Shown here: positions 13,817 to 30,650 of the stretch, piece after piece
Position numbering within the stretch: position 1 is the first letter of the stretch
How the letters are laid out: each line of letters starts with the position of its first letter
The notes under the pieces: model-generated
The model's database searches: none
What the model saw: only the letters and a program-made list of their open reading frames with translations
What the model was told of the DNA's origin: nothing
Position numbers and translations under genes: made by a program
Source of the DNA: Brevibacterium moorei
GTDB lineage: Bacteria > Actinomycetota > Actinomycetes > Actinomycetales > Brevibacteriaceae
Reading direction: 5' to 3'
NCBI RefSeq assembly: GCF_024580735.1
Contig: NZ_JANIJX010000017.1
Span: 24,079 to 88,078 of the forward strand
Length of the DNA: 64,000 nucleotides

Positions 13817-15846
13817 CGCAGGCAGCGCAGAACACCGTGCAGACCCCCACCGACTCCGGATCCATGCTGGGCCTTGAACCACTGACCGGCCAGGCCCTGC
13901 AGGACTACATCGAGGCCCAACCGATCAACCCCGCCGGCCTGCCGACGCCGTACGAACACGGCGAACGGCTGACCCCGGAGGGGACCTCGGTCGACCCGAT
14001 CGTCGTCGAAATCGTCGAGGGCACCCTGGCCAGCGTGGAGATGGAGGTGGAGACCGCCATCGCCAGGACCTCGCGCTCGCCGATGATCCGCGACGCCCAC
14101 GACTTCCGCGCCGGCATCCACGACCGGCAGCTGCGCAAGCTGACCGGCCGATCGTACTCCGCCCTGGTCCACCCCGTGGTGCGTGACTACCCCATCGACC
14201 AGATGAAGGAAGGCGACGTCTTCTTCCACAACGACGTCTACGAATCCGAAGGCGGCATCGGCCACCTGCCGGACATGTGCGTGACCGTCCCCGTGTTCGC
14301 CGACGGCAAGGTCGTGTGCTTCGTGCAGGCCTTCGGCCACCACGACGACATCGGCGGCGCGACACCGGGCTCCATGCCCTCGGCCGCGACCAGCGTGTTC
14401 GAGGAGGGCCTGATGATCCCCCCGATCAAGCTGTGGGACCAGGGCGTGCCGAACAAGTCCGCCCAGCGCATCATGACGCGCAACTCCCGGATGCCCGACT
14501 CCATCGCGGCGGACCTGGACGCGGAGTGCTCCGCCTGCCTGATGGGCGCCCGCCGGCTGTCCGAGCTGTTCACCCGCTACGGCGTGGACACCGTGGAGGC
14601 CGCCTTCGACACGATCCTGGACAATACGACGGAGATCTACCGGCGCGAGATCCTCTCGAAGATCCCCGACGGACAGTACGTGTGGGAGGACTACGCAGAA
14701 CACGACGGGGTCTCCGATCCGATGCTGCACACCCAGCGGATCACCCTGACGAAGACCTCGACGGGCGGCCCGGGCGATGGCCCGCGCCTCATCATCGACT
14801 TCACCGGCACTGCGGCCCAGGCTGTGGGCCCGATCAACCACTGCGGCGACTACGTGGGCGGGAACTTCCTGAAGAAGTGGCTGGCGCCGATCCTGCGCAA
14901 CCTGGCAGACACCCCGGAGCGGATGGCCGAACTGGACGTCAACGAGGGCATCGTGCCGCTCATCGAGATGCGCTTCCCCGAGAAGGGCACGCTGCTCACC
15001 CCCGTGTTCCCCGGGCCCACGAACGCCCGCACCTTCGTCATCCTGCGCCTGCTGGGCGTGCTGGCCGGCGTGGTCGCCAAGGCCGTGGACGGACAGATGC
15101 CGGCGGACCAGGAGACGATCCGCTACACCGGCGTCTACGGCAAGGACCGCGACGGCAACGACTATCTGATGCGCGAAGTGCTCGGCGGCGGCTCCGGCGG
15201 GCGCTACTACTCCGACGGCGAGGACACCATCCACGTGGTGCCCGACTCCCGCAACCTGCCCACCGAGTTCACCGAGTCCCGCTTCCCCTTCCTAGTGGAG
15301 CGCCTGGGCCTGGCCCAGGATTCCGGCGGTGCCGGCCGCTACCGCGGCGGGCTGGGCTATGAGAAGCACATCCGGATGCTCAAGGACGGACACTTCATGT
15401 CGATCGCCGACAGGTCCATCCTGGCCTGCTGGGGTGTCAAGGGCGGTCTGGCGGGCAAGCCCTTCCAGGTCACCATCGACCCGGGCGGCCCGGAGGAGCG
15501 CGAAGTTGAGGCGCTGGCCGACGACGAGCCGATCAGGGCCGGCCAGGTGGTGCGCATCCGCACCACCGGCGGCGGCGGCTGGGGCGACCCGCTGGAGCGG
15601 CCCTATGACGAGGTGCTGCGCGATGTCCGCTGGGCCAAGGTGTCCGTGGCCGGGGCGCACGACTCCTACGGCGTCGTGATCACCGGCACCGGCGACGATG
15701 TCGCGGTGGACGTCGCGGCCTCGGACGCGCTGCGCGCCGAAATGCGAGCCGGACGCACCGGCGAGGAGCCGTTCTTCGACCGCGGGCCCGGCTTCGCGGC
15801 CCTGGCCGGCGACGGGTCCCAGGCGCCGTCCGTGGACTGGCTGTGA
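13813..15846 (+). CDS. hyuB: HyuB, hydantoinase/oxoprolinase family subunit B
   Basis: A 677-residue B subunit, the partner of HyuA that carries out ring opening. It shows DPIVVEIVEGTLASVEMEVETAI at the start of the conserved region, HNDVYESEGGIGHLPDM, GHHDDIGG (metal-binding His/Asp) and the Gly-rich C-terminal GGGWGDPLERP. It starts at a GTG with GGAGG eight bases upstream, within the HyuA stop (GTGA overlap), so the subunits are made in step. An A/T/Q-rich N-terminal tail of about 50 residues precedes the conserved domain. The carbamate kinase gene starts only 4 nt downstream, so the three form one operon. Confidence 0.88.
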   Translation: MTQAAQNTVQTPTDSGSMLGLEPLTGQALQDYIEAQPINPAGLPTPYEHGERLTPEGTSVDPIVVEIVEGTLASVEMEVETAIARTSRSPMIRDAHDFRAGIHDRQLRKLTGRSYSALVHPVVRDYPIDQMKEGDVFFHNDVYESEGGIGHLPDMCVTVPVFADGKVVCFVQAFGHHDDIGGATPGSMPSAATSVFEEGLMIPPIKLWDQGVPNKSAQRIMTRNSRMPDSIAADLDAECSACLMGARRLSELFTRYGVDTVEAAFDTILDNTTEIYRREILSKIPDGQYVWEDYAEHDGVSDPMLHTQRITLTKTSTGGPGDGPRLIIDFTGTAAQAVGPINHCGDYVGGNFLKKWLAPILRNLADTPERMAELDVNEGIVPLIEMRFPEKGTLLTPVFPGPTNARTFVILRLLGVLAGVVAKAVDGQMPADQETIRYTGVYGKDRDGNDYLMREVLGGGSGGRYYSDGEDTIHVVPDSRNLPTEFTESRFPFLVERLGLAQDSGGAGRYRGGLGYEKHIRMLKDGHFMSIADRSILACWGVKGGLAGKPFQVTIDPGGPEEREVEALADDEPIRAGQVVRIRTTGGGGWGDPLERPYDEVLRDVRWAKVSVAGAHDSYGVVITGTGDDVAVDVAASDALRAEMRAGRTGEEPFFDRGPGFAALAGDGSQAPSVDWL

Positions 15847-15850
15847 CGCG

Positions 15851-16780
15851 ATGAGGGTACTGGTGGCCCTGGGCGGCAACGCCATGACCGGGCCGGACGG
15901 GGACGCCTCACCGGACGCCCAGCGGCGCGCGATCGCCCGGGCCGCCGTGCACCTGGCCGATCTGGTGGCGGCCGGCCACGAGGTGGTCGTCACCCACGGC
16001 AACGGCCCGCAGGTCGGCAACATCATGCGCAAGAACGAGCTGGCATCGGTCGAGCTCCCACCGGTCAGCCTGGACTGGTGCGGGGCGCAGACCCAGGGCA
16101 CCCTGGGCTTCACGATCGTCAACCGGATCGAGAAGGAACTGGGTGCCCGCGGGATCGACAAGCACGTCACCGCGCTCGTCACCCGCACCGTGGTGGACCC
16201 GGACGATCCGGCCTTCGACGATCCGGTCAAGCCGATCGGGTCCTACCAGGACGCGGCCCACGCCGCGCGGATGAGCGCGCTGGGCCAGGTCTGGAAGGAC
16301 TTCGGGGCCAAGGGCTGGCGGCGCGTCGTGCCCTCGCCGGATCCGCAGGAGATCCTGGAGACGCCCACCGTGACCCATCTGGTGGACGCCGGCTGGATCG
16401 TGGTGGCCGCCGGTGGCGGCGGCATCCCCGTGGTGCCCGACGGTACCGGCTACAACGGGGCCTCGGCCGTGATCGACAAGGACCTCAGCGCGGCCAGGCT
16501 GGCGCTGTCGGTGGGCGCGGACCGGCTGGTCATCGCCACCGATGTGCCCTATGCGGTCGCGGGCTTCGGCACGCCGGAGGCACGCGATATCGAACAGGTG
16601 GACGTGGCCGGACTGCGCGCGATCGCAGCCCAGGGCACCTTCGCTTCCGGGTCCATGGGCCCCAAGGTCGAGGCGGTCCTGCGCTTCGTCGAGGGCGGCG
16701 GGCCGATGGGCGTGATCGCCTCCTTGGACGCCCTGCCCGAGGCCGTGGCCGGCACCGCGGGCACGGTGGTGACGGCGTAG
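15851..16780 (+). CDS. Carbamate kinase (ArcC/AllK type)
   Basis: A 309-residue amino-acid kinase-fold enzyme that makes ATP from carbamoyl phosphate and ADP. Visible motifs are VALGGNAM, THGNGPQVGNIM, CGAQTQGTLGF, GGGGIPVV with GYNGASAVIDKDLSAARLA, and GSMGPKVEAVLRFVE at the C-terminus, all standard for carbamate kinases. No arginine deiminase or ornithine carbamoyltransferase is in the window, whereas the oxamate carbamoyltransferase genes allH and allFG are 4-9 kb downstream. It therefore probably serves ureide rather than arginine fermentation, like E. coli AllK (YbcF). It lies 4 nt after hyuB, which suggests that carbamoyl phosphate metabolism and hydantoin-ring opening are co-expressed. 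Confidence 0.9.
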   Translation: MRVLVALGGNAMTGPDGDASPDAQRRAIARAAVHLADLVAAGHEVVVTHGNGPQVGNIMRKNELASVELPPVSLDWCGAQTQGTLGFTIVNRIEKELGARGIDKHVTALVTRTVVDPDDPAFDDPVKPIGSYQDAAHAARMSALGQVWKDFGAKGWRRVVPSPDPQEILETPTVTHLVDAGWIVVAAGGGGIPVVPDGTGYNGASAVIDKDLSAARLALSVGADRLVIATDVPYAVAGFGTPEARDIEQVDVAGLRAIAAQGTFASGSMGPKVEAVLRFVEGGGPMGVIASLDALPEAVAGTAGTVVTA

Positions 16781-16836
16781 CGGCGGACGCCGGGCCCGGT
16801 CGGTGGCGCTCGACCCCCTCCACCAGCTGCGCCGCT

Positions 16837-16842
16837 TAGGAT
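16837..16842 (+). promoter_or_regulatory. Putative -10 box of leaderless mocA transcript
   Basis: TAGGAT ends 7 nt before the ATG at 16850. This favours 16850 over the in-frame ATG at 16841, which overlaps the box itself. The 56 bp between the kinase stop and the box contain nothing else recognisable. Confidence 0.45.
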
Positions 16843-16849
16843 GGAGGCG

Positions 16850-17563
16850 ATGGTCACACCGAAGAATCCACAGATCCCCGTGGTCCTGTTGGCCGCGGGC
16901 CGGGGCCGCCGCATGGGTGGGCCCAAGGGCCTGTTGCGCGACGACAGGGGCCGGTCCCTGGTGGCCTGCCAGGTGGAGTCGATCCGCCGGGCCGCCGCCC
17001 TGGAACCGCACCTGGATCCAGATCCGATCGTGGTGCTCGGCGCCGCCGCGCAGCGGGTGGAGCACCTGGTGCCCGCCGGTGCGCGGATCGTCCACAACCC
17101 CGACTGGGCCTCCGGGATGGGCGGCTCGCTGGCCGCCGGCCTGCGCGCCGTGCCGGCGGATGCGCCAGGGGCCCTGGTGATGTTGCTCGACCTGCCCCAC
17201 GTCCCGGCCGAGGCCCTGGCCCGCCTGGCCGCACAGACGGACCCCGGGCAGCTGGCCCGGGCGCTGTGGAACGGCGTGCCCGGACACCCCGTGGCCATCG
17301 GCGCAGCGCACATCCCGGCGGCCATCACCGCCTGCCACGGCGATGCCGGCGCGCGCGGATTGTTCGCCGCCGCGGAACCCGCCGCCGTGAACCTGGTCGA
17401 ATGCGCCGATCTGCTGGCGCCCGGCGTGCACGGGGACGCCGATATCGACACACCGGAACAGGCGGCTGCCGCAGGGTTGCGGCTGCCCGCAGCGCTGCCC
17501 GCCCAGGGACATGGGGCCGACACGCGCGAGGATGCCGGACGGGCCAGAGGAGAGCGCGCATGA
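16850..17563 (+). CDS. mocA: MocA-like molybdenum cofactor nucleotidyltransferase
   Basis: A protein of about 237 residues with the MobA-like NTP-transferase signature LLAAGRGRRMGGPKGLLR at its N-terminus, then NPDWASGMGGSL and MLLDLPHVPAEAL (metal-binding Asp), and GVPGHPVAIG. MocA transfers CMP to Mo-molybdopterin to make the cytosine dinucleotide form used by CO-dehydrogenase/xanthine-oxidase-family enzymes. That fits the CoxL-type hydroxylase 14 kb downstream. The C-terminal 20 residues are polar and poorly conserved. The stop overlaps coxD by ATGA. The start is uncertain between 16841 and 16850. Confidence 0.8.
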   Translation: MVTPKNPQIPVVLLAAGRGRRMGGPKGLLRDDRGRSLVACQVESIRRAAALEPHLDPDPIVVLGAAAQRVEHLVPAGARIVHNPDWASGMGGSLAAGLRAVPADAPGALVMLLDLPHVPAEALARLAAQTDPGQLARALWNGVPGHPVAIGAAHIPAAITACHGDAGARGLFAAAEPAAVNLVECADLLAPGVHGDADIDTPEQAAAAGLRLPAALPAQGHGADTREDAGRARGERA

Positions 17564-18495
17564 CGGAACGATCAGAACACATCCCGCTCGACGGTCCCGA
17601 ATCCTGCCGCCGGGCGCTGGCGGCCGCCGGCTACATCGCCGACGACGCGGTGGCCACCGCCTGCTTCCTGGCGCTGGAACTGGACCGGCCCCTGCTGTGC
17701 GAGGGCGTGCCGGGGGTGGGCAAGACCAGCCTGGCCCGGGCCCTGGCCCAGGTTCTGGGCGGACCGCTGATCCGCCTGCAGTGCTACGAGGGCCTCGACT
17801 CCACCCACGCCCTCTACGATTGGGACTTCGCCGCGCAGATCCTGCACGTGCGCACCCTGGAGGCCCAGGCCACGAGCACGGGGACCGCACTGGCGGCCGC
17901 CGGCATCGAAGACGAACTGCACCGCGAGCGCTTCCTGGTCGCCCGGCCCATCCTCAAGGCCCTGCAGGCCGGCGCGCCCGTGGCTGCCGGCGCCGCGGGC
18001 GGGCGGGCGGTGCTGCTGATCGACGAACTGGACCGGGCGGACGACGAATTCGACGCCCTGCTGCTCGAAGTGCTCTCCGACTGGTCCCTGACGATCCCGG
18101 AACTGGGCACCGTGCGCGCCGCGGTGCCGCCGGTGGTGATCCTGACCTCGAACCGGACCAGGGACGTCCACGATGCGCTCAAGCGCCGCTGCCTCTACCA
18201 CTGGTTCGACCAGCCGGGCCCCGAGCGGGAACGCGAGGTGCTGGCCCTGCACGTCCCACATGCCGCGAGCGGGCTGCGCGGTGCCGTGGTCGCCGCCGCC
18301 GGGCGCCTGCGGGCGGCCGATCTGCTCAAACCGCCGGGGACCTCGGAGACGATCGACTGGTTGCGCGCCCTGCACGCCCTGCGGGTGGACGAACTGGACG
18401 AGCCGGCGCTGCGGGCGAGTCTGTCCGCGGTGGTCAAGGACGCCGCAGACATCCCCGTGGCGCGCGAGGTCCTGGGCGTGACCGGCGGTGCCTGA
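17560..18495 (+). CDS. CoxD-like MoxR AAA+ ATPase
   Basis: A 311-residue AAA+ ATPase. The Walker A is CEGVPGVGKTSLARAL, the Walker B is VLLIDELDRADDEFDALLLE, and sensor 1 is VVILTSNRTRDVHDALKRR. The C-terminal lid helps mediate substrate remodelling. CoxD of carbon monoxide dehydrogenase belongs to this MoxR group and helps mature the Mo active site. Together with the VWA protein encoded next (8-bp overlap) it forms the usual MoxR-VWA chaperone pair. Start and stop overlaps with mocA and coxE indicate one transcript, mocA-coxD-coxE-xdhC. Confidence 0.88.
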   Translation: MTERSEHIPLDGPESCRRALAAAGYIADDAVATACFLALELDRPLLCEGVPGVGKTSLARALAQVLGGPLIRLQCYEGLDSTHALYDWDFAAQILHVRTLEAQATSTGTALAAAGIEDELHRERFLVARPILKALQAGAPVAAGAAGGRAVLLIDELDRADDEFDALLLEVLSDWSLTIPELGTVRAAVPPVVILTSNRTRDVHDALKRRCLYHWFDQPGPEREREVLALHVPHAASGLRGAVVAAAGRLRAADLLKPPGTSETIDWLRALHALRVDELDEPALRASLSAVVKDAADIPVAREVLGVTGGA

Positions 18496-19570
18496 ACTGG
18501 CCCGGGTGCTCACGGACTTCGCCGCAGCGCTGCGCGCCCAGGGGCTCGCCGCCGACCCCACCAGAGTGGGCCTGTTGCTGCGCGCTGTGGCATTGGTGGA
18601 CCCGCTGGACGTGGCGCAGGTGCGCGCCGCGTCCCGGACGATCATGTGCTCACAGCGGGAGCACCCGGCCGTACACGACCGCGTCTTCGACCGCTACTTC
18701 GGCCTGGCCGGCCGCCGGCTGCCGCGTTCGACCCCGGACGAGGTCCGGGTCCCCACGGCACAGGAGGGCGCCGGCGGGCAGGACGGGGAGGAGGGCGCGG
18801 GGCCCATCGTGCCGCAGGCCAGGGCGGCGCGCACCGAACTGCTGCGCCACGTCGACCTGGGCGCCTCCGAACTGGCCGGCGAGGCGCTGGCCCTGATGGA
18901 GCGGCTGGAGCTGCGCAGTCCCCGGCGGCGCTCGCACCGCGTCCGCCCTGCGCCGCGGGGCACGCCGGATGAGCGGCGGACCCTGCGGCTGCTGGCCCGC
19001 GGACGCGAACTGGACCGACTGCCCACCGCCCGGCCCCGGGTCCGGCGCCGCCCGGTGATCGTGGTCGCCGATGTCTCCGCTTCGATGGACGAATGGCTGC
19101 CGGCGCTGTTGCGCTTCATGCAGCGGGCCGTGGTGGAGATCGACGCGCGCGCCTTCGCCCTTGGCACCCGGCTGACGCACCTGAGCCCGCGGCTGACCGG
19201 GCCGGGCGGGGTGGCGGCGGCTCAGCGCGCCATCCCGGATCTGGCCTCGGGCACCCGGCTGGGCGACGGGCTGCACGAGCTGGTGGACTCCCGGTGGCGC
19301 GAGGCCGTGCGCGGCAGCGTGTTCGTCCTCATCAGCGACGGCTGGGAGCGCGGGGACTGCGCCGGGCTGGAGGCGGCGGCGGGCCGGATCGGCCGGCTGG
19401 CGCGGCACTTCGTGTGGATCAACCCGCGGGCCGGGCGCACCGGCTTCGCCCCCGAGATCCGCGGGATGCGGATCGCCCAGCGCTACAGCGATGCGCTGAT
19501 ACCCGCGACCACGGTGGCCGATTGGCAGCGGGCCTGCACCCATATCGCGATGGAGAGGGAGATGCGATGA
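18488..19570 (+). CDS. CoxE-like VWA-domain protein
   Basis: A 360-residue protein. The N-terminal half is helical and conserved in the CoxE family. The C-terminal half is a von Willebrand A domain with the MIDAS motif DVSASMDEW and a later metal-site segment FVLISDGWERGD. CoxE acts with the MoxR ATPase in maturing Mo hydroxylases. A charged insert near residue 95 (about GAGGQDGEEGAG) separates the two parts. It starts with a GTG inside the coxD end and its stop overlaps the xdhC start, so stoichiometric translation is expected. Confidence 0.85.
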   Translation: MPELARVLTDFAAALRAQGLAADPTRVGLLLRAVALVDPLDVAQVRAASRTIMCSQREHPAVHDRVFDRYFGLAGRRLPRSTPDEVRVPTAQEGAGGQDGEEGAGPIVPQARAARTELLRHVDLGASELAGEALALMERLELRSPRRRSHRVRPAPRGTPDERRTLRLLARGRELDRLPTARPRVRRRPVIVVADVSASMDEWLPALLRFMQRAVVEIDARAFALGTRLTHLSPRLTGPGGVAAAQRAIPDLASGTRLGDGLHELVDSRWREAVRGSVFVLISDGWERGDCAGLEAAAGRIGRLARHFVWINPRAGRTGFAPEIRGMRIAQRYSDALIPATTVADWQRACTHIAMEREMR

Positions 19571-20781
19571 GCACTGCGAACCCACCGGGGACTGCTCCGG
19601 GGGCTGCCCCGGGCGGCGAAGCGGGTCCGAGCACGGATCCGAGCACAGCCGAACTCGCCGGCACCCTGCTCGACTGGCTGCACACGGACCGGCCCTTCGC
19701 CCTGGCCCTGGTCGTGCAGACCTGGTCCTCGGCACCGCGGCCGGCCGGGGCGCTGATGGCCGTGGCCGCCGACGGGCAGGTGGTCGGCAGCCTGTCGGGC
19801 GGCTGCGTGGAGGGCGCGGTGCACGAGCTGGCGCTCGACGTCCAGCGCACAGGAGGCGCTGCCCTGGCCCATTACGGGGTCAGCGACGACGATGCCTTCG
19901 CGGTGGGCCTGGCCTGCGGCGGCAAGCTCGACGTGCTCGTCACCGCGCTGGGCCCCGGCGACCGGGAGGCCCTGGCAGCCCATCTGGCGGCCGGCCGGGC
20001 GGGCGGCCCGAGCGCCCTGGCGGTGCGGCTGCCGGCCGGGCCCGGTGAGCCCGATCCGGCGGGGCCGCACCTCATGCGGATCGGGCCCGGTGGTGCGCCC
20101 GGGGCCGCGGACAGTTCCGCGAGTCCAGGCGCCGCCGCAGGGACCCTGGGGGACTCGGGGCTCGACGCCCGGATCGGGACTCTGGCCACTGACCTGATCG
20201 GCACCGGCGCCACCCGGGTCCTGCAGCCCGCGGACGGACCGCGGGTGCTGGTCACGGCCTCGGCGGCACAGCCGCGGCTCATCGTCTTCGGCGCGATCGA
20301 CTACGCCGCCGCCCTGGCCGAACTGGGCCGGTTCCTGGGCTACCGGGTGACCGTCTGCGACGCCCGCGCGGTGTTCGCCACCGCCGCGCGCTTCCCCGCC
20401 GCCCACGAGGTCGTCGTGGCCTGGCCGCACCGCTATCTGGCAGCCGAGGTGGACGCCGGGCGGGTCGCGGCCTCGACCGTGGTGGCGGTGCTCACCCACG
20501 ACCTGAAGTTCGATGTGCCCGTGCTGGCCCAGGCCCTGGCATCGCCCGCGGCGTACATCGGCGCGCTGGGCAGCCGGCGCACGCACGCCCTGCGCGTTCA
20601 GGCCCTGGCCGAGGCCGGGGTGGCCGCCGAGGACATCGCCCGGATCCACGCGCCGATCGGCCTGGACCTGGGTGCGCGCACCCCGCAGGCCACGGCCGTG
20701 TCGATCTTCGCCGAGGTGATCGGCGCGGCAGCCGGCCACACCGGTGGGAGCCTGAAGGATTCCGTCGGCCCGATCCACTGA
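19567..20781 (+). CDS. XdhC/CoxF-family Mo-cofactor insertion protein
   Basis: A 404-residue protein of the XdhC/CoxI/CoxF family, which binds Moco and hands the sulfurated form to the apo-hydroxylase. The N-terminal XdhC domain has TWSSAPRPAGALMAV and GSLSGGCVEGAVHE. The C-terminal Rossmann-like domain has LIVFGAIDYAAALAELGRFLG, VCDARAVFATAARFP and AAYIGALGSRRTH. Between them lies a G/P/A-rich insert (about residues 155-205). It is the last gene of the mocA-coxD-coxE-xdhC operon and converges on allFG, with a GC-rich hairpin between them. Confidence 0.87.
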   Translation: MSTANPPGTAPGAAPGGEAGPSTDPSTAELAGTLLDWLHTDRPFALALVVQTWSSAPRPAGALMAVAADGQVVGSLSGGCVEGAVHELALDVQRTGGAALAHYGVSDDDAFAVGLACGGKLDVLVTALGPGDREALAAHLAAGRAGGPSALAVRLPAGPGEPDPAGPHLMRIGPGGAPGAADSSASPGAAAGTLGDSGLDARIGTLATDLIGTGATRVLQPADGPRVLVTASAAQPRLIVFGAIDYAAALAELGRFLGYRVTVCDARAVFATAARFPAAHEVVVAWPHRYLAAEVDAGRVAASTVVAVLTHDLKFDVPVLAQALASPAAYIGALGSRRTHALRVQALAEAGVAAEDIARIHAPIGLDLGARTPQATAVSIFAEVIGAAAGHTGGSLKDSVGPIH

Positions 20782-20794
20782 CCGGGCCGGCGAC

Positions 20795-20825
20795 CCCGGG
20801 GCCGGGCCGGAAACCCGACCCCGGG
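20795..20825. terminator. GC-rich hairpin between convergent xdhC and allFG
   Basis: An inverted repeat with 11-bp arms (one mismatch, 20796-20806 and 20814-20824) lies in the 51-bp gap between the two converging stop codons. There is no T-tract on either side, so it may serve as a bidirectional stem-type terminator. Confidence 0.5.
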
Positions 20826-20832
20826 CGCTGGC

Positions 20833-23817
20833 TCAGGCCCGCTGGGCCAGGGTCTCGATGCCGGTGGTGAAGCACTCGCGCGGGGGATTGACCAGCCCGG
20901 CGCCCACCTGGCCCACACCTGCGACCCGGCCGGCCATGCCCGTGTTGATCTGCGGCAGCACGTTCGTGCGCAGCACCTTGACGATGTCGATGCCGGAGGG
21001 CACGCCGCGGAACTCCAGGATCGGGATCTGGTGGACCGGGTGCTCGCCCAGGGTGATCTCGTACATCCGCTGCGTGGTCTCCACGGCGAAGGGCACGTCC
21101 CCGCCCACCAGGCGCACTACGGCCGGTGCCGCGGCCATGGCCAGGCCGCCGATCCCGGCGGTCTCCGTGATGGCGGAGTCGCCGATGTCCGGGTTCGCGT
21201 CCTCGGGTCCGTAGGAGCCCAGGAACAGGCCCTCGGCGATCTGCGCGGGACCGGTGTACCAGGTGTCACCGGTGCCGGCCAGCTGCACGCCGAACTCCGT
21301 GCCGTTGCGCGCCATGGTCACGACCATGGACGAACCGGCCACGCCCTTGGCCGCGTGCATCGCGAGCTTGCAGGTGGGCATCACCAGGTTGAGCGCGAAG
21401 TAGTCATTGGCGCCCAGGAAGCGGCAGACCTCGGCCAGATCGGAGGACTCCCAGCCGTCCAGGTTCAGCAGATCGGGCATCAGATCGCGCAGGAACAGCA
21501 GGGTCGCCGTGCGGTTGCGGTTGTGCCCCTCATCGCCGGACTGCAGCATCTGGGAGACATAGTATTTCGTGTCGATCGGACCGTGCGCGGCCACCGCCGC
21601 GCCCAACACAGGGCCCAGCACATCGCGCATCCAGCGCAGCCGGGTGAGCACCTCGTCGTTGTTCGCGCCGTAGCGCAGCACTTTGCCCAGGCCCTCGTTG
21701 AGCGAACAGTAGGCGCGGCCGCCGTAGACCGGGTCGCGCAGCTCGAACATCCACATCGAGGGGCTGACCACGCCGGCCATCGGGCCCACCGCATCGCGCG
21801 AATGGCACGGGGCCATGGTGAAGCGGCCGTCGGCCAGGCCGGCCTCGGCCTCCTCGAGGGTATCGGCCAGGCCCTCGAAGACCACTGCGCCGGCCAGCGC
21901 GCCGCGCATCGGGCCCGAGGCGTTCTCCCACTGCAGCGGCGGGCCCGAGTGCAGGAACTCGTTGTCCGCCAGGCCCAGGCATTCGCGGGCGGGCCGTAGA
22001 CCCACCAGTTCCGCTCCGGCATTCAGGATCCGCTCGAGCGCCTCCTGGTTCGCCGCCAGTCTCCGGGGATCGGACATCACCCGGTAGATCGCGGCGGCAT
22101 CGCCCAGCGGCGGCTGCCAGGGGACCTCGGTGACGTCGACGGCCTGGGCGCGCAGGGCATCGGCGAACAGCGCCACGCCCACGGTGGCGACCGTGGGCTC
22201 CCCGTCGAGCAGGCCGTGCAGCGCCGGGCCGGCGGCCTCGGCCGCGGCGGTCAGGGCGGACTCCGCACCGGCGGCAGCCGGCGCAGACCCGGCCGGCGCG
22301 GCTGCGGCCGGCTGCGCGGACGCGACGCCCAGCAGTTCCAGCGCCCGACGCACGGCCTGTGCATTGGAGGCGTAGACCTCGGCCCCGGCGGCCACCAGCG
22401 TCTGCGCCGTGGCGGCGAGGTCCTGCGGATCGGCGGGCGTGCCCAACAGGCTCACGACCACCGGCAGGTTCCGGCCGGAGTCCGCCGCGGCGGCCCTGGC
22501 GTCCGAGATCGCCGCGGCCAGATCAGCCGCCGGGTCCTGATGGGCGCCATGGCCCAGCACCAGATCCAGCACCAGGACGCCGGCGTGTTCGGCCTGGGCG
22601 CGGATCGCCTCGAGGCGCAGGCCCGGATCGATCATCGGGTGGGCGCGCCCCTGGGTCATGGCGTCGTCGCCGAAGTCCACCACGGCATGACCGGTGGCCG
22701 GAATCCGCGCGCCGTCGATGCGCGGGGCGCCGGCCAGCGGGATGTTCGAGGGAATGGGGCCCAGCCCGGCCGCGGCGATCAGCATGGCCTCATCGGCCAG
22801 GGTGCCGCCGCAGAACAGACCGCGCAGCGGGCCGGCGACGTCTCCGGCCGCAGTGGTGCTCTCCGGCAGCCAGCGCGGCCACCGGGGTGCGGGGTGTCCG
22901 GCCGCGGCCAGGGCGTGCTCGACGCCGGCCGTCAGATCGGGGGAGTCCGGGCCCAAGACGGCCCAGCTGACCGCCAGGCCCAGCTCGGCGGCCAGGGATT
23001 CGACCTTGGCCACGACCTGCGGATCGGCCGGTTTGGACACGACGACGACGTGCTCGGTGGCGGGATCGGCGGCCAGGGCGCGCAGCGCCTGCTTGGTCGT
23101 CAGACCGCCGACCTGCGCGCTCAGATCGCGTCCGCCTGTGCCGATCAGATGACTCACACCCACACCGGCCGCGTCGAGCAGCGTCGAGACCTGCTGGGAC
23201 CCGGTGCCAGAGGCCCCGACGATGCCGAAGGAGCCGGCGGCGACCCGGTTGGCGAAGCCCAGACCCGCGCCGCCGATGATCGCGGTGCCGCAATCGGGGC
23301 CCATCAGCAGCAGATCGCGCTCGCCGGCGTAGCGCTTGAGTTCGACCTCGGTGGCGACGTCGACATTGTCGCTGAACAGCAGGACGGAACTGCCGGCGTC
23401 CAGGGCGGCCCTGGCCTCGATCCCGGCGTAGGCGCCGGGCACGGATACCACGGTGAGGTTGGCGCCGGCCCGGTCCACCGCGGACTCGACCGTCAGCGGG
23501 GGCTGGACGCCCGCGCCGAGGCCGCCGGCGGACTTCGCCGCGGCGGTCAGTTCCGCGAAGGCCGAGTCGACGGCGGTGCGCCCGGCGGCCAGGGTGTCCT
23601 CGTCGGTGGCGCGCAGGGCGATGACCAGGTCGTTCGGGGTGACGTCGGCGGGTACCGGGAAGCCCACCCCGCGCATCAGTTCCAGGTTGAGTTCGGTGCC
23701 CATGCCGATCAGGGCATCGGTGATTCCCTCCGTGGTCTGCTTGACCCGGGTCGAGACTTGCATGAGGGCGACGGAGTCGAAGTAGAGGCCGGCTTTGACG
23801 TCGAGGAGTTCGGGCAC
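20833..23817 (-). CDS. AllF-AllG (FdrA-YlbE) fusion, predicted oxamate carbamoyltransferase subunits
   Basis: A 994-residue fusion of two proteins that are separate in E. coli. Residues about 1-500 match FdrA/AllF, with succinyl-CoA-synthetase-like blocks MGPDCGTAIIGG (172-183), GASGTG, IGTGGRDLS and FCGGTLADEAM. An A/P-rich linker spans about 500-535. Residues about 580-994 match the DUF1116 protein YlbE/AllG, with RAYCSLNEGLGKVLRYGA, LTRLRWMRDVLGPVL, NPDIGDSAITETAGIGG and the C-terminal GVGQVGAGLVNPP. AllF, AllG and AllH together form oxamic transcarbamylase, which splits oxalurate phosphorolytically into oxamate and carbamoyl phosphate. I start it at the GTG 23817, preceded by AAAGGGA, where the FdrA homology begins. 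It lies 68 bp after allH in the same operon. Confidence 0.88.
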   Translation of the reverse strand: MPELLDVKAGLYFDSVALMQVSTRVKQTTEGITDALIGMGTELNLELMRGVGFPVPADVTPNDLVIALRATDEDTLAAGRTAVDSAFAELTAAAKSAGGLGAGVQPPLTVESAVDRAGANLTVVSVPGAYAGIEARAALDAGSSVLLFSDNVDVATEVELKRYAGERDLLLMGPDCGTAIIGGAGLGFANRVAAGSFGIVGASGTGSQQVSTLLDAAGVGVSHLIGTGGRDLSAQVGGLTTKQALRALAADPATEHVVVVSKPADPQVVAKVESLAAELGLAVSWAVLGPDSPDLTAGVEHALAAAGHPAPRWPRWLPESTTAAGDVAGPLRGLFCGGTLADEAMLIAAAGLGPIPSNIPLAGAPRIDGARIPATGHAVVDFGDDAMTQGRAHPMIDPGLRLEAIRAQAEHAGVLVLDLVLGHGAHQDPAADLAAAISDARAAAADSGRNLPVVVSLLGTPADPQDLAATAQTLVAAGAEVYASNAQAVRRALELLGVASAQPAAAAPAGSAPAAAGAESALTAAAEAAGPALHGLLDGEPTVATVGVALFADALRAQAVDVTEVPWQPPLGDAAAIYRVMSDPRRLAANQEALERILNAGAELVGLRPARECLGLADNEFLHSGPPLQWENASGPMRGALAGAVVFEGLADTLEEAEAGLADGRFTMAPCHSRDAVGPMAGVVSPSMWMFELRDPVYGGRAYCSLNEGLGKVLRYGANNDEVLTRLRWMRDVLGPVLGAAVAAHGPIDTKYYVSQMLQSGDEGHNRNRTATLLFLRDLMPDLLNLDGWESSDLAEVCRFLGANDYFALNLVMPTCKLAMHAAKGVAGSSMVVTMARNGTEFGVQLAGTGDTWYTGPAQIAEGLFLGSYGPEDANPDIGDSAITETAGIGGLAMAAAPAVVRLVGGDVPFAVETTQRMYEITLGEHPVHQIPILEFRGVPSGIDIVKVLRTNVLPQINTGMAGRVAGVGQVGAGLVNPPRECFTTGIETLAQRA

Positions 23818-23885
23818 GGGCTTGTCCCTTTCGATCGGGGTGGATGGACGTGGACGTTTGGTAGTGCAGGATGCGCTGGTGCGGT

Positions 23886-24863
23886 TCACGGGGCGGCGCG
23901 CGCGGTCGCGGTGGCCGGGTCCGCCGGAGCCTCCGGTGCGCCGCGGGCCCGGTGGGCCAGGGCCGCTCCCAGCAGCAGGTCGTATCCGGAACTGTGGCCG
24001 ATCCCGGAGACCAGTTGCAGGGCCGGTTCCGGGTCGGTGAGATCCGCGAGCGAGGCGATCGCGCGGGCCGTCTGCGGCAGGCAGTAGCCGGCCAGGGCGG
24101 CTTCGATCAGCGAGGCCGACAGCGCCGGGGTGCGCGCGTAGAGCAGGGGGCCGGGCAGGTGTTCGCGCAGGAGCGCCAGCGCGCTGTCCTGCCCGCCGGC
24201 GCGCAGGGCCAGGGCGACACCGCAGAGCAGATCGTCGCCCGAGGGCGTGCTGCCGGGGCCGAAGCCCAGCAGGTGGTGCACGGCGGAGGTCAGGGCAGGG
24301 GACCGCTCGGTCAGGGCGGCCAGCAGTTCCCGGCCCCGGCGGGCCAGGTCGGAGTGCCCGGTGTGTGCGGCGATCGTCGCGAGCACTTCGGCGGCCCCGC
24401 CGGCTGCGGCCCGTGGCGCCGCGGCGGGCGAAGGGCGGGCGGCCACCGGCTGTACCCGCCGACGGGCGATCCTGGTGGGCCGCCAGGTGCGGGCCGCGCG
24501 CAGCTGCAGGCCGTCGGTCTCCAACGCCCGCACGAGCCCTGTCCGGTCGGTGTGGACCAGGACCGGATCGCCGGTGGAGATTCCGGCCAGGTGCCGGTGG
24601 TCCAGTCCGGGGCAGCGCAGTCCGGTTGGCAGCTCGAGGGCGCCGGGGCCCAGGACGGGCAGCACGCGCGGGCACGGTCCGGTGGTGCAGACGTAGAAGC
24701 CGGTGCCGAAGATCTGCAGAACGGCACCCGGCAGCACGGCTTCCGACCGGACCGTGCGGGGCCGGCCGGCAACTGGGGCCCCGGCCACCGGACTCGGGGT
24801 CGGCGGGGTCGAAAAGGGCAGGGGGGAGGCCGCCGCCGGGATGATAAGTGATCTGGACCTCAC
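23886..24863 (-). CDS. allH: AllH (YlbF, DUF2877), predicted oxamate carbamoyltransferase subunit
   Basis: Up to 325 residues. The DUF2877 signature LGFGPGSTPSGDDLLCG sits around residue 205 and GIGHSSGYDLLLGA near residue 300. This family includes E. coli YlbF, renamed AllH, the third subunit of oxamic transcarbamylase. It is the first gene of the reverse-strand operon and is divergent from pucR. The GTG at 24863 leaves only 35 bp between the two genes. An internal GTG at about 24735, next to the conserved VLPGAVLQIF segment, is a reasonable alternative start. The A/P/R-rich N-terminal and mid-protein inserts are typical of G+C-rich genomes. Confidence 0.82.
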   Translation of the reverse strand: MRSRSLIIPAAASPLPFSTPPTPSPVAGAPVAGRPRTVRSEAVLPGAVLQIFGTGFYVCTTGPCPRVLPVLGPGALELPTGLRCPGLDHRHLAGISTGDPVLVHTDRTGLVRALETDGLQLRAARTWRPTRIARRRVQPVAARPSPAAAPRAAAGGAAEVLATIAAHTGHSDLARRGRELLAALTERSPALTSAVHHLLGFGPGSTPSGDDLLCGVALALRAGGQDSALALLREHLPGPLLYARTPALSASLIEAALAGYCLPQTARAIASLADLTDPEPALQLVSGIGHSSGYDLLLGAALAHRARGAPEAPADPATATARAAP

Positions 24864-24898: not shown

Positions 24899-26584
24899 AT
24901 GTCAAACGATGCCAAGAAGAGGCCCGATTTGCAGCAAGAAATGCTACTCGAGCTCGAGGGTGTCGAAACGGTGGCGCTGACGGTCCGCGAAGTGCTTCAG
25001 CTGCCCAGCATGCGGGGCTGCACCGTGGTCGCCGGTCGCGCGGGGCTGGACCGGCTGGTCGAGAAGACCAATGTCATGGAGGTCCCCGACATCCTCCCCT
25101 GGGTCAAACCGCGCGAACTCCTGTTGACCACCGGATATCCGCTGCGGGAGGCCCCCGACGCCCTGGTGGAGTTGCTGGGCCGCGTCGAAGCGGCGGGGGT
25201 CTCTGCCCTGTGCATCAAACCGGGTCGCTATATCGACCGGATCCCACCGCAGGCGCTGGCCGAGGCCGAACGCCTGTCCCTGCCCATTCTGGAGCTGGGC
25301 GAGGGCGTGGGATTCGACGAGATCATGCACGAGGTGCTCTCCTCGAGCCTGAGCCGGGGCGTAGCCATGATCCGGCTGGCCGAACACACCATGCGGGAAC
25401 TGGTCAACGTGGTCGTCGGCGGTGGCGACCTGACGGACGTGTGCCGGATGCTCATCGAGCGCATCGGCTTCGCCGCGGCCGTCACCACCCTGGACGGCCG
25501 CCTCAAGGCGATGGTGGCCGAATCAGATGCCGAACGCGAACGCCTGCTGGGCCTGAGCTGCTTCGACGAATCCGGCAGGTTCATCGTCGAGGACGAGCCG
25601 GCCAGGGCGGCCAGGTCCCAGGGGCAGGTGTTCTGGGGCAACTGTCAGATCCTCGATGACGAGCGGACGCTGGGCCGGATCGTGGCGTTCTCCGACCGGA
25701 CCCCGGGGGACGTCGAATTCCGGGTGCTGGAGCAGGCGGCCGCGGCCGCCGCCCTGGTGCTGGCCCGCGAGCAGTCGGTGGCGGCGGTGGAGAGCAAGTA
25801 CCGCAGCGACTTCGTGCTCGAAGTGCTGCGCGGGCACATTGCATCCCCGGAGCGCACGGTGTCACATGCGAAGTCCCTGGGATGGGACCTGGACCGTGAA
25901 CTCAACGTGGTCGTCGCCGAGGCCGATCCCAGCGATGACAGCGTGGCCGCCGACGATCTGTCCCAGTTGCAGACGCTGTTCGCCCGCGCCTGGTCCTCTG
26001 TGGTCTCCGCCGACGATCCCCATGCGGCGGTCGTCGGGTCGGGCGATCAGGTGATCCTGCTGCTGGCGGCGGCCGACCGCGACGAGATCGTCGAGCGGGT
26101 GCGCGCCTACGCCACCGCGGTGCGGGGGCGCGGCGGCGGTGGCCGGAGGGAGTTCTCCGTGGGGATCTCGCGGCCCACCGCGGACGTCGTCGACCTGGCC
26201 GATGCCTATCAGCAGGCGACCAGGGCCCTGGACGTGGGGCGTCAGCTGGGGGCCGGCCACAACTTCAGCCACTTCGACGGACTGGGCGTCTACCGGTTGC
26301 TGCTGCACGTGGGGCAGAAGGAGGAACTGCGCGCCTTCGCCCAGGAGACCTTGGGCGTGCTGGCCGGCGATGACAAACCGGAATACGCGGACCTGCGGGA
26401 GACCCTGCAGGCCCTGCTCGACCACAATCTCAACGTCGCGGAGACGGCACGGGCGCTGTTCTTCCACTACAACACGCTGCGCTATCGGATCACCAAACTC
26501 GAACGCATGATCGGTCCATTCACCCGTGATCCGCACCTGCGGCTCGCCGTCGAACTCGCCCTGCAGATCGTCAAACTTCCATAG
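24899..26584 (+). CDS. PucR-family transcriptional regulator
   Basis: A 561-residue regulator. The N-terminal PucR ligand-binding domain spans about residues 25-145 (TVREVLQLPSMRGCTVVAG, EVPDILPWVKPRELLLTTGYPL). A central GGDEF-like/CdaR-type region follows, and the C-terminal HTH_30 domain reads DHNLNVAETARALFFHYNTLRYRITKLERMIG. PucR proteins activate purine and ureide catabolic genes in Bacillus and actinobacteria. Its position between the allH-allFG operon and two NCS2 permeases makes it the likely regulator of both. Its own effector cannot be read from the sequence, though a ureide such as allantoin is expected by family precedent. Confidence 0.88.
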   Translation: MSNDAKKRPDLQQEMLLELEGVETVALTVREVLQLPSMRGCTVVAGRAGLDRLVEKTNVMEVPDILPWVKPRELLLTTGYPLREAPDALVELLGRVEAAGVSALCIKPGRYIDRIPPQALAEAERLSLPILELGEGVGFDEIMHEVLSSSLSRGVAMIRLAEHTMRELVNVVVGGGDLTDVCRMLIERIGFAAAVTTLDGRLKAMVAESDAERERLLGLSCFDESGRFIVEDEPARAARSQGQVFWGNCQILDDERTLGRIVAFSDRTPGDVEFRVLEQAAAAAALVLAREQSVAAVESKYRSDFVLEVLRGHIASPERTVSHAKSLGWDLDRELNVVVAEADPSDDSVAADDLSQLQTLFARAWSSVVSADDPHAAVVGSGDQVILLLAAADRDEIVERVRAYATAVRGRGGGGRREFSVGISRPTADVVDLADAYQQATRALDVGRQLGAGHNFSHFDGLGVYRLLLHVGQKEELRAFAQETLGVLAGDDKPEYADLRETLQALLDHNLNVAETARALFFHYNTLRYRITKLERMIGPFTRDPHLRLAVELALQIVKLP

Positions 26585-26616: not shown

Positions 26617-26698
26617 GGTTCGGCAGTGGTTCACACCACATAGCCTGGGGTATGAGACCTTCGTTCGATCAATGGTGATGAAGAACCCGGGAGCATTC

Positions 26699-28102
26699 GT
26701 GGCGATATTCGGTTGGACCGTCCATGGCGATGGCAAGCATGTGAAACAGGGTGAGGTCGTCAAGACCTATGAGCGCCTCACCTGGCCGCGGACCATCGGC
26801 TTCGGAGCGCAGCACGTGGTGGCGATGTTCGGCTCCACGTTCATCTTCCCCATCGTCATGGGGCTCAACCCGCAGCTGGCGGTGATGATGAGCGGGGTCG
26901 CCACCATCATCTTCCTGCTCATCGTCAAGGGCCGGATCCCCAGCTATCTGGGAACGTCCGCGGCCTTCGTCGGAGGCGTCGCGGCGGTCCACGCCCAGGG
27001 CGGGACGCCGCAGGAGGTGACCGGTGCGATCATGGTCGCCGGCATCGTCCTGGCCCTTGCCGGCGTCTTCATCCACCTGGTCGGCGCGCAGTTCCTGACC
27101 AAGGTCCTGCCACCTGTGGTGGTGGGCGGGGTCGTCATGCTCATCGGTTTCAACCTGGCGCCCGTGGTGGCCAGGACCTACTGGCCCCAGGACCAGTGGA
27201 TCGCCCTCATCGTCATGCTCTTCACCATCGTCATCGCCGTCGTGGCCAAGGGATTCCTGGGCCGGATGGCGGTCCTCCTGGGCCTGGTCTTCGGATACCT
27301 GCTGTCGTGGGTGTTCGACCGTGCGTTCGGCCAGATCACCTCCTTCAGCTCCTCCGCAGGAGAGGCGACGACGCACTGGCGGGTCGATTGGTCCTCCGTG
27401 TACGCGGCCGACTGGTTGGGGCTGCCCCCGATGACGGATGCCGCGGCCGGGGTCGTGGGCTTCCACCTGCCGGTCTTCAACGCGGCGGCGATCATCGTCA
27501 TGCTGCCGGGGGTGATCGCCCTGGTGGCGGAGAACGTCGGACACGTCAAAGCGGTCGAGGAGATGATGGGGGAGCCGCTGGACAAGTACGTCGGGCGGGC
27601 GGTCGTCGGCGACGGGGTGGCGACCGCCGTCGTCACCATGGTCGGCGGTTCCCCGACGACGACCCATGCGGAGAACATCGGTGTGATGGCCGCGACCAGG
27701 GTCTACTCCACCGCCGCCTACTGGGCGGCGGCCGGTATCGCGATCCTCTTCGGGTTCTCCCCGAAGTTCGGCGCGCTCATCTCATCGGTGCCCGGCGGCG
27801 TGCTGGGCGGGATCATGGTCGTCCTGTACGGCATGATCGGGCTGCTGGGGGCCAAGATCTGGATCGAGAACAAGGTCGACTTCGCGCGGCCGGTCAATAT
27901 GGTGCCGCTCGCCGCGGGCGTCATCATCGCCATCGGCGATGTCAGCCTGAAGTTCTCGGAGACATTCACCCTGTCCGGGATCACCCTGGGCACCATCGTC
28001 GTGCTGGTGATGTACCACCTGGGCCGCTGGCTGACGGACCGGTCGGCCGGCAGGGCCGGTGCGGCCGCCGACCCCGGCGTTCGCAATGTTAAGCGCGAGT
28101 AA
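26699..28102 (+). CDS. NCS2-family xanthine/uracil-type permease, copy 1
   Basis: A nucleobase:cation symporter-2 (NAT) permease of about 467 residues with 12-14 membrane helices. Conserved features are FPIVMGLNPQLAVMMSG, LIVKGRIPSYLGTSAAF, the helix-8 stretch IALVAENVGHVKAVEEM and the NAT signature region GVATAVVTMVGGSPTTTHAENIG. I prefer the GTG at 26699, because GGGAG stands 5 nt upstream and the resulting start VAIFGWTVHGDGK matches its paralogue's MAIFGWKLHGDGK. The in-frame ATG at 26672 lacks this. It probably imports xanthine, uracil or a related base for the downstream Mo hydroxylase. The gene lies 114 bp after pucR on the same strand. Confidence 0.87.
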   Translation: MAIFGWTVHGDGKHVKQGEVVKTYERLTWPRTIGFGAQHVVAMFGSTFIFPIVMGLNPQLAVMMSGVATIIFLLIVKGRIPSYLGTSAAFVGGVAAVHAQGGTPQEVTGAIMVAGIVLALAGVFIHLVGAQFLTKVLPPVVVGGVVMLIGFNLAPVVARTYWPQDQWIALIVMLFTIVIAVVAKGFLGRMAVLLGLVFGYLLSWVFDRAFGQITSFSSSAGEATTHWRVDWSSVYAADWLGLPPMTDAAAGVVGFHLPVFNAAAIIVMLPGVIALVAENVGHVKAVEEMMGEPLDKYVGRAVVGDGVATAVVTMVGGSPTTTHAENIGVMAATRVYSTAAYWAAAGIAILFGFSPKFGALISSVPGGVLGGIMVVLYGMIGLLGAKIWIENKVDFARPVNMVPLAAGVIIAIGDVSLKFSETFTLSGITLGTIVVLVMYHLGRWLTDRSAGRAGAAADPGVRNVKRE

Positions 28103-28168: not shown

Positions 28169-28262
28169 ACCTGCGCCTCACGGCTGTCCTAGAGTGTGGG
28201 ATACGGCGCGGCCTGTCAATCACGGAACCCCCACCTCGGCGCCACCGGCTAAGGAGCACAGC

Positions 28263-29750: not shown

Positions 29751-30650
29751 ATGAAGCCGTCCCCATTTACCATCCATCGGCCCACGAGCGTGGAACAGAC
29801 CCTGGAACTGCTGAGCGAGTTCGGCGCCCACGGCAAGATCATCGCCGGCGGCCAGAGCCTGGTCCCCGTGCTCAATATGCGGCTCGCAGCACCCGAACAC
29901 CTCATCGACATCACCGCGGTCAGCGGACTGTCCGACATCGTCGTGCACGATGGCGACGTCGAGGTGGGAGCCCTGGTCAGCCATGCCCGGCTGGAACACG
30001 ATGAGCGCGCCCACGCCGCACAGCCCGTGCTGCGGGCGGCCCTGAAGTGCGTGGCCCACCCCGCGATTCGCAACCGGGGGACCACGGTGGGCTCCCTGGC
30101 CCACGCCGACCCCAACGGGGAGATGCCGATGATCCTGGCGCTGACCGGCGGGCACGTCGACGTGGTGAGCAGCAGGGGGACGCGCAGCCTGGAGGCCGCC
30201 GAACTCAATGTGGGCCCGTTGGAGACCTGTTTGGAATCCGATGAGCTCATCGTCAAGGCGGTGTTCGGCGGTCTGGCCCCCGGCCAGTCGGCGGACTTCG
30301 CCGAACTCACCAGGCGCACCGGCGACTACGCCCTGGCCGGGGTCGGCATGGTCCTGAGCGCCGATCCGGACACCGGCGAGTTGACCGGGCTGCGGGCGGG
30401 CTTCGTGTCCGTGACCGACCTGCCCGACATCCTGGACCTGGGCGGTGTCGTGGCCGGGACCCAGCGGGCCGAGGCCGCCGCCCTGGTGCCCACGATCGCA
30501 CAGGCGGTCGAGGAGTTCGTCGATCCGGTGGGCGACATCCATGCCACTGCGGACTATCGGCGCCACCTGGCCGGGGTGATGGCCGGTCGGGTTTTCACAG
30601 GACTGATCTCCGGGGCCGTCCCCGGAAGGGAAACGGAGGAGGCGGCATGA
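29751..30650 (+). CDS. Mo hydroxylase FAD subunit (CoxM/XdhB type)
   Basis: A 299-residue FAD-binding subunit of the xanthine oxidase/CO dehydrogenase family. It carries both FAD motifs of the family, AGGQSLVPVLNMRLA near residue 35 and the nearby TTVGSLAHADPNGEMP at about residue 105. The C-terminal CO-dehydrogenase flavoprotein domain is present and the length is normal. It passes electrons from the [2Fe-2S] subunit to an acceptor such as NAD+ or a quinone. Its stop overlaps the next gene (ATGA), giving the gene order medium-small-large that is common in CODH-type loci. Confidence 0.9.
   Translation: MKPSPFTIHRPTSVEQTLELLSEFGAHGKIIAGGQSLVPVLNMRLAAPEHLIDITAVSGLSDIVVHDGDVEVGALVSHARLEHDERAHAAQPVLRAALKCVAHPAIRNRGTTVGSLAHADPNGEMPMILALTGGHVDVVSSRGTRSLEAAELNVGPLETCLESDELIVKAVFGGLAPGQSADFAELTRRTGDYALAGVGMVLSADPDTGELTGLRAGFVSVTDLPDILDLGGVVAGTQRAEAAALVPTIAQAVEEFVDPVGDIHATADYRRHLAGVMAGRVFTGLISGAVPGRETEEAA

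What the first reader, a model, noticed from the sequence alone, without database searches (positions are those of the whole stretch)
15851..24863. Single-chain AllF-AllG with AllH, carbamate kinase and PucR: a predicted oxamate-carbamoyltransferase branch in an actinobacterium
The 994-residue protein joins homologues of FdrA (AllF) and YlbE (AllG), with a DUF2877 protein (AllH) 68 bp upstream, a divergent PucR regulator and a carbamate kinase 4 kb away. In E. coli the separate AllF, AllG and AllH proteins make oxamic transcarbamylase, and AllK turns carbamoyl phosphate into ATP in anaerobic allantoin use. Finding the set fused, beside a Mo hydroxylase and NCS2 permeases, suggests a purine-to-ATP route in a G+C-rich actinobacterium. 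The fusion also fixes F:G stoichiometry at 1:1.
Basis: partly seen in the sequence, partly recalled or inferred. Interest (0 to 1): 0.75.

Follow-up and report, generated by a model that had tools for sequence, protein, structure and literature searches.

The report
Fused transcarbamylase of pyrimidine breakdown
An actinobacterium (likely a Brevibacterium) encodes as one protein two parts that E. coli makes separately for its oxamate-forming carbamoyl transferase, and because most related genomes examined also carry a barbiturase-family gene, usually in the same stretch of DNA, the enzyme is predicted to split an opened pyrimidine ring rather than an allantoin product and would let the cell recover ATP from it.

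Summary
In detail: minus-strand ORF 20833-23817 (994 aa) joins AllF/FdrA and AllG; AllH lies 68 bp upstream, PucR is divergent, carbamate kinase is 4 kb away. The fusion is not unique: all 120 listed database hits are fused, as are 18 of 81 loci, needing at least 6 changes on a tree. The purine/oxamate reading fits poorly: no uricase hit, only PyrC as a strong allantoinase-profile hit, no urease above cut-off, and a place outside the E. coli AllFG clade. In Actinobacteria the gene travels with a molybdenum hydroxylase, NCS2 permease, HyuAB and, in 30 of 35 genomes, a barbiturase-family gene; the three tested are closest to solved barbiturase. I predict a phosphorolytic oxidative pyrimidine route: barbiturate, ureidomalonate, then malonamate plus carbamoyl phosphate, then ATP. 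This genome shows no barbiturase, so HyuAB is the predicted ring opener. A plasmid operon with atzF, fdrA, DUF1116, a ring-opening amidohydrolase and carbamate kinase suggests one enzyme family for related acylureas. No activity was tested.

The parts
20833..23817 (-). Fused AllF-AllG (FdrA-YlbE) protein, 994 aa, GTG start; low-confidence linker about 504-528
23886..24863 (-). AllH (DUF2877) subunit, 325 aa, GTG start; N-terminus resembles those of two Brevibacterium relatives
24899..26584 (+). PucR-family regulator, divergent from allH
   Evidence: PucR within the flank in 24 of 35 actinobacterial loci
26672..28102 (+). NCS2 nucleobase permease, nearest NCBIfam model RutG (346 bits, cut-off 758)
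28194..29717 (+). Second NCS2 permease, nearest RutG (351 bits, cut-off 758)
29751..30650 (+). Mo hydroxylase FAD subunit
30647..31219 (+). Mo hydroxylase 2Fe-2S subunit
31216..33612 (+). Mo hydroxylase large subunit, PYRGAGR in place of the CODH motif; predicted pyrimidine hydroxylase
33735..34466 (+). CoxG-like Mo-enzyme accessory protein
34436..35956 (+). Amidase, predicted to hydrolyse the amide product (malonamate)
   Evidence: an amidase directly follows F-G in the Ornithinimicrobium stretch
11687..13816 (+). HyuA, hydantoinase/oxoprolinase A subunit; best solved relative N-methylhydantoinase
13813..15846 (+). HyuB, 677 aa from GTG 13813, overlaps the hyuA stop, AGGAGG upstream
15851..16780 (+). 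Carbamate kinase (ArcC/AllK-like), 309 aa, 39% to E. coli AllK
16841..17563 (+). MocA-like NTP transferase (Mo cofactor)
17560..18495 (+). MoxR-type AAA ATPase (start uncertain)
18488..19570 (+). VWA CoxE-like protein
19567..20781 (+). XdhC-type Mo cofactor insertion protein (start uncertain), convergent with the fusion

Best explanation
The fused AllF-AllG protein with AllH is predicted to be an acylurea transcarbamylase that likely cleaves ureidomalonate, the ring-opened form of barbiturate, with phosphate into malonamate and carbamoyl phosphate, within a predicted oxidative pyrimidine pathway. Shown by sequence: the fused F-G protein, AllH, carbamate kinase, HyuAB, Mo hydroxylase, NCS2 permeases, amidase and PucR lie in one region. 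Inferred chain: NCS2 uptake of uracil or thymine; the Mo hydroxylase adds oxygen next to a ring nitrogen to give barbiturate; the ring is opened (by barbiturase in most relatives, by ATP-using HyuAB here); the fusion plus AllH transfers the terminal carbamoyl group to phosphate; carbamate kinase makes ATP, NH3 and CO2; the amidase turns malonamate into malonate and NH3. The expected substrates of the wider family share the shape H2N-CO-NH-CO-X-COOH: oxalurate (X absent), ureidomalonate (X = CH2), carboxybiuret (X = NH).
For: HyuB in 35 of 35 actinobacterial F-G genomes examined, on the F-G contig in 25 and within 25 kb in 21. Barbiturase-family PF09663 in 30 of these 35, 0 of 15 other F-G genomes and 0 of 14 controls; on the F-G contig in 20 (2-45 kb) and on the F-G or HyuB contig in 27 of the 30. 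The three tested (two of them cut by stretch ends) are nearer solved barbiturase 5hwe than cyanurate hydrolases: 461 vs 239, 534 vs 280, 632 vs 332 bits. All three carry Asn where the compared cyanurate hydrolases have Arg (5hwe itself has Asn). Carbamate kinase adjoins barbiturase in three regions read (G421, G423; Embleya). Mo large subunit within the flank in 30 of 35 loci. Nearest solved Mo enzyme by sequence is quinoline 2-oxidoreductase; NCS2 nearest RutG. Amidase in one overlapping run with AllH-F-G in Ornithinimicrobium. In this genome: no uricase hit, no strong allantoinase-profile hit but PyrC, one DHO_dh-family hit, no RutA or urease over cut-off. Plasmid run atzF-hypothetical-fdrA-DUF1116-ring-opening amidohydrolase-carbamate kinase. 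Precedent for phosphorolytic versus hydrolytic variants of one ureido step (PMC12507026, passages).
Against: The window's own genome has no PF09663 hit, nor do its four nearest Brevibacterium relatives among the loci, so the ring opener here rests on HyuAB by inference. HyuAB is also present where barbiturase is, so its role is unclear; none was found in the 37-kb Embleya stretch. HyuB alone is common: 6 of the 15 other F-G genomes and 6 of 14 controls have it. NCBIfam's cyanurate hydrolase model NF052395 accepts the Blastococcus barbiturase-like protein (473 bits over 360) and nearly the cut Frankineae one (357.9). Of the 30 PF09663 genomes, G430 has only contig-end fragments and G413 and G415 incomplete or broken matches. 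A close carbamate kinase is in only 10 of 35 fetched loci. The AllH motif was not found in 6 of 35 loci. 23 of the 49 AllG genomes lack the close Mo subunit, and G181, G192, G297 and G378 have it (50-61%) without AllG. RutG scores are far below cut-off, and NCS2 members also carry xanthine (recalled). The PDB-nearest Mo enzyme does not fix the substrate. One paper reports Gln, not Asn, at the barbiturase position (PMC4051656, passages).
Confidence: 0.55

Rival explanations
1. One reading: an oxamate carbamoyltransferase that ends a purine-allantoin-oxalurate branch and feeds carbamate kinase.
For: E. coli AllF-AllG-AllH is the only characterised relative that I saw in print (PMC11326118, parts 1 and 3 of 6 and passages). 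114 columns are at least 95-97% conserved in each of three groups of the tree's rows. PucR-family regulator and NCS2 permeases.
Against: No uricase hit; PyrC is the only strong hit of the allantoinase search. The ten-row clade holding E. coli AllFG is separate, with 21 positions fixed differently (at least 94% and 90%) from the actinobacterial clade. AllB/AllD-cluster neighbours were seen only in loci of the E. coli clade (7 of its 10 rows, E. coli by its annotation), apart from one Chloroflexota locus (L071) whose cluster hit was not checked further; the clusters were named from one representative, L078. PuuE-type allantoinase, AllC and AllD were not searched genome-wide.
Confidence: 0.15
2. 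The same module works on another cyclic ureide, for example hydantoin, N-methylhydantoin or a methylated xanthine product, opened by HyuAB; the transcarbamylase then acts on a different N-carbamoyl compound.
For: HyuA is nearest N-methylhydantoinase among solved structures, and HyuB is more constant (35 of 35) than barbiturase (30 of 35). The window clade has HyuAB and no barbiturase hit.
Against: Barbiturase linkage in most relatives examined, in three regions directly beside carbamate kinase. The permeases are NCS2, not the NCS1 type known for hydantoin (recalled; NCS1 was not searched for).
Confidence: 0.22
3. The FdrA half works as an acyl-CoA synthetase, as databases name it, and no carbamoyl transfer occurs.
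Against: The E. coli AllFGH transcarbamylase assay (PMC11326118), the AllH partner and the carbamate kinase nearby.
Confidence: 0.05

Closest known systems
E. coli oxamic transcarbamylase AllF-AllG-AllH with AllK (PMC11326118)
   Same: All three subunit families plus a carbamate kinase; 36% (F) and 44% (G) identity; matches to the solved structures 3dmy and 3clq
   Different: F and G are one chain; the AllH gene comes first; different clade; no allantoin genes nearby; Mo hydroxylase, HyuAB and barbiturase-family neighbours in its clade
Oxidative pyrimidine pathway with barbiturase and ureidomalonase (PMC3758960, passages)
   Same: Barbiturase-family gene in 30 of 35 related genomes; Mo hydroxylase and nucleobase permease in the same region
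   Different: The described route is hydrolytic and yields malonate and urea; here phosphorolysis to carbamoyl phosphate and ATP is predicted, and the window genome itself shows no barbiturase-family hit
Reaction modules with YgeW/UGTCase transcarbamylases, hydantoinase and carbamate kinase in purine breakdown (PMC4016543, parts 1-3 of 7; PMC12507026, passages)
   Same: Logic: ring opener, transcarbamylase, carbamate kinase, Mo enzyme
   Different: The transcarbamylase is AllFGH-type, described as showing no similarity to known transcarbamylases (PMC11326118), and the ring opener is HyuAB or barbiturase
Klebsiella quasipneumoniae plasmid pKqs_SB610_3 operon
   Same: fdrA and DUF1116 genes next to a ring-opening amidohydrolase and carbamate kinase
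   Different: Separate F and G genes, atzF present, no Mo large subunit or AllH motif found in the stretch read; cyanurate-type substrate likely

Membership tests
AllFGH oxamate carbamoyltransferase | All three subunit families present and adjacent | tested here: met
AllFGH oxamate carbamoyltransferase | Groups with the characterised E. coli enzyme | tested here: not met
   Separate actinobacterial clade of 36 rows (SH-aLRT 100) in a quick tree of 82 rows without bootstrap
AllFGH oxamate carbamoyltransferase | AllB-type allantoinase in the genome, as a source of oxalurate | tested here: not met
   Best hit of TIGR03178 is 236 bits against a 357.85 cut-off and is PyrC beside PyrB by inspection; no uricase hit; PuuE, AllC and AllD not searched
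AllFGH oxamate carbamoyltransferase | Oxalurate/oxamate transcarbamylase activity | not testable with these tools
   needs purified protein
Oxidative pyrimidine (barbiturate) pathway | Barbiturase gene in this genome | tested here: not met
   PF09663: 0 of 1; the same search finds it in 30 of 35 related genomes
Oxidative pyrimidine (barbiturate) pathway | Barbiturase linked to the same gene set in relatives | tested here: met
   three proteins compared with solved structures, the others only by family
Oxidative pyrimidine (barbiturate) pathway | Mo hydroxylase oxidises uracil or thymine | not testable with these tools
   Only homology: nearest solved is quinoline 2-oxidoreductase
Aerobic CO dehydrogenase (NCBIfam name of the large subunit) | AYRCSFR active-site motif (motif recalled) | tested here: not met
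   PYRGAGR instead, though NF040766 scores 1413 bits over its 950 cut-off
Carbamate kinase | Scores over a curated carbamate kinase model | tested here: met
   NF009007 284.5 over 266; TIGR00746 332 under 358

The most novel reading that the evidence does not exclude
Actinobacteria hold an undescribed energy-conserving pyrimidine pathway in which an AllFGH-type enzyme phosphorolyses ureidomalonate, and the linked Mo hydroxylase, now named CO dehydrogenase group 5, is the long-known uracil/thymine dehydrogenase activity. AllFGH enzymes as a whole are a family of acylurea phosphorolases for oxalurate, ureidomalonate and carboxybiuret, paired each time with its own ring opener (allantoinase, barbiturase or HyuAB, cyanurate hydrolase).
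Probability: 0.45. Interest if true: 0.78.

Novelty: new variant of a known kind. Interest (0 to 1): 0.6.

Why it matters
The oxidative pyrimidine route has been described as rare and as ending in malonate and urea (PMC3758960, passages). If the prediction holds, a range of actinobacteria use a version that recovers ATP, the AllFGH family gains a second and perhaps a third substrate, and a Mo enzyme named CO dehydrogenase in databases gets a different job. Each step can be tested by an enzyme assay.

Tried and rejected
Fusion as a rarity: rejected. Oxamate/allantoin assignment: weakened. Mo enzyme as CO dehydrogenase: rejected on the motif, which is recalled. Barbiturase in this genome: searched, no hit. 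Reductive and Rut pyrimidine routes here: DHO_dh gives one hit, which I take as PyrD; the strong hit of the allantoinase-type search is PyrC by inspection of its ORF and its PyrB-like neighbour, with no family search of it; RutA gives three hits, none over cut-off. The NCS2 score does not separate uracil from xanthine transport. A cyanurate substrate for the actinobacterial set was set aside because the three tested proteins are nearer solved barbiturase, although NCBIfam's cyanurate hydrolase model accepts one of them; the Lachnospiraceae protein (L067) is nearer cyanurate hydrolase, 434 vs 298 bits. AllH matched no solved structure by sequence at E 0.1. Paper searches for AllFGH and its fusions, DUF1116, ureidomalonate/malonamate, and barbiturase with uracil, hydantoinase or carbamate kinase listed no such pathway (open-licence PMC only; listings, not all papers opened).

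The 50 genomes searched are 35 of the 36 actinobacterial loci (L088, on a 3.9-kb contig, left out) and 15 of the 44 others. L060 (Gulosibacter) is one of the 35 but lies outside the actinobacterial clade. Flanks were at most 10 kb and some contigs are short, so absences within a locus are weak.

Full report

How common is the fusion. All 120 listed homologues, the window's own included, are fusions of 983-1039 aa, from Brevibacterium and Intrasporangiaceae where named (families of the genera recalled). In 80 loci fetched from genome contigs plus E. coli, 18 of 81 are fused: 10 actinobacterial and 8 in spirochaetes, Chloroflexota and lactic-acid-type bacteria. On a quick tree of 82 rows the fused state needs at least six changes. 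The fusion is therefore recurrent, and compatible with F and G working as a pair.

Not the E. coli pathway. The fusion falls in a clade of 36 actinobacterial rows (SH-aLRT 100, stem 0.82); E. coli AllFG lies in another clade of ten rows, seven of which carry allantoinase- or AllD-cluster genes (clusters named from one representative). 114 columns are at least 95-97% conserved in every group, and 21 are fixed differently between the two clades. In the window's genome there is no uricase hit; the only strong allantoinase-profile hit, below cut-off, is PyrC beside PyrB by inspection; urease alpha gives one hit below cut-off, 21.6 against 23; PF01180 gives one hit; RutA gives none over cut-off.

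What the gene travels with. Within the fetched flanks the Mo large subunit (at least 55% identity) is found in 30 of 35 actinobacterial loci, NCS2 in 33, PucR in 24, the AllH motif in 29, and a close carbamate kinase in 10. Exceptions: G378 has the subunit without AllG, as do G181, G192 and G297 at 50% and G183 as a fragment; 23 of the 49 lack it. HyuB is found in 35 of 35 actinobacterial genomes (in G415 and G418 as pieces), on the F-G contig in 25 and within 25 kb in 21. HyuB alone is common, in 6 of the 15 other genomes and 6 of 14 controls, so the linkage is what counts. Wider stretches from 16 genomes show a recurring order: NCS2, Mo hydroxylase, CoxG, often an amidase or nitrilase, HyuA, HyuB, and in some a CoA-transferase III, an NmrA-like gene or carbamate kinase. 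In Ornithinimicrobium AllH, F, G and an amidase form one overlapping run.

Barbiturase. PF09663 (cyanurate hydrolase/barbiturase family) is present in 30 of the 35 actinobacterial genomes, 0 of 15 others with F-G and 0 of 14 controls; in G430 only as contig-end fragments, in G413 and G415 incomplete or broken. It shares a contig with F-G in 20, with HyuB in 27, and with either in 27 of the 30. Three tested proteins, two of them cut by the stretch ends, are far nearer to solved barbiturase 5hwe than to cyanurate hydrolases; all three carry Asn at a position where the compared cyanurate hydrolases have Arg, as does 5hwe. Against this, NCBIfam's cyanurate hydrolase model accepts the Blastococcus protein (473 over 360), and a paper passage reports Gln at that position for its barbiturase subgroup (PMC4051656). 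In Blastococcus, Frankineae and Embleya regions carbamate kinase adjoins barbiturase. The five genomes without the family are four Brevibacterium and Gulosibacter; those four and the window form one five-row clade. The window genome shows no hit either. In that lineage HyuAB is the only candidate ring opener I found; that step is inference.

Mechanism. The AllFGH reaction known in E. coli is oxalurate + phosphate = oxamate + carbamoyl phosphate (PMC11326118). Ureidomalonate, the barbiturase product, has the same H2N-CO-NH-CO end with one extra CH2. The printed route ends with ureidomalonase, giving malonate and urea (PMC3758960, passages); a genome without a clear urease gains little from urea. 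Phosphorolysis would give malonamate and carbamoyl phosphate, carbamate kinase would give ATP, and the amidase would release the second nitrogen. A hydrolytic/phosphorolytic pair of variants for one ureido step is in print for urate breakdown (PMC12507026, passages). A further lead: a Klebsiella quasipneumoniae plasmid carries atzF, a hypothetical gene, fdrA, DUF1116, a ring-opening amidohydrolase and carbamate kinase in a row, and an Aminobacter plasmid has the same F-G/hydrolase adjacency by coordinates. There carboxybiuret (X = NH) to allophanate would be the matching reaction. I read the family as transcarbamylases for opened cyclic ureides. No step has been assayed.

Verdict. The oxamate branch is replaced by a predicted barbiturate branch, with HyuAB's exact role, the Mo enzyme's substrate and the uracil starting point open.

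Noticed in passing
31216-33612: The Mo large subunit passes NCBI's model for aerobic CO dehydrogenase group 5 but has PYRGAGR and no CODH motif (motif recalled), so the public name is probably wrong.
   Followed up: partly
L151 (NZ_CP084773.1 43883-56854): Klebsiella plasmid run with atzF, fdrA, DUF1116, ring-opening amidohydrolase and carbamate kinase, a likely cyanurate version of the module.
   Followed up: partly
L043, L047, L051, L052 and similar loci: Outside Actinobacteria a PF04199 cyclase-family cluster (one representative annotated) occurs in 20 F-G loci, 13 of them also with a Mo large subunit hit, perhaps in place of HyuAB.
   Followed up: partly
6810-7778: NmrA-like NAD-binding protein; a gene of the same Pfam family sits next to HyuB in several relatives.
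   Followed up: partly
45947-48394: GmrSD-family restriction protein on the minus strand.
   Followed up: no
L099, L100, L102-L104: The five Geodermatophilaceae loci have F and G but no AllH motif in the stretch read; whether a diverged or distant AllH exists is open.
   Followed up: partly
L067, L070: Lachnospiraceae with AllH, F, G, carbamate kinase and amidase clusters; in L067 a cyanurate-hydrolase-type protein lies nearby.
   Followed up: partly
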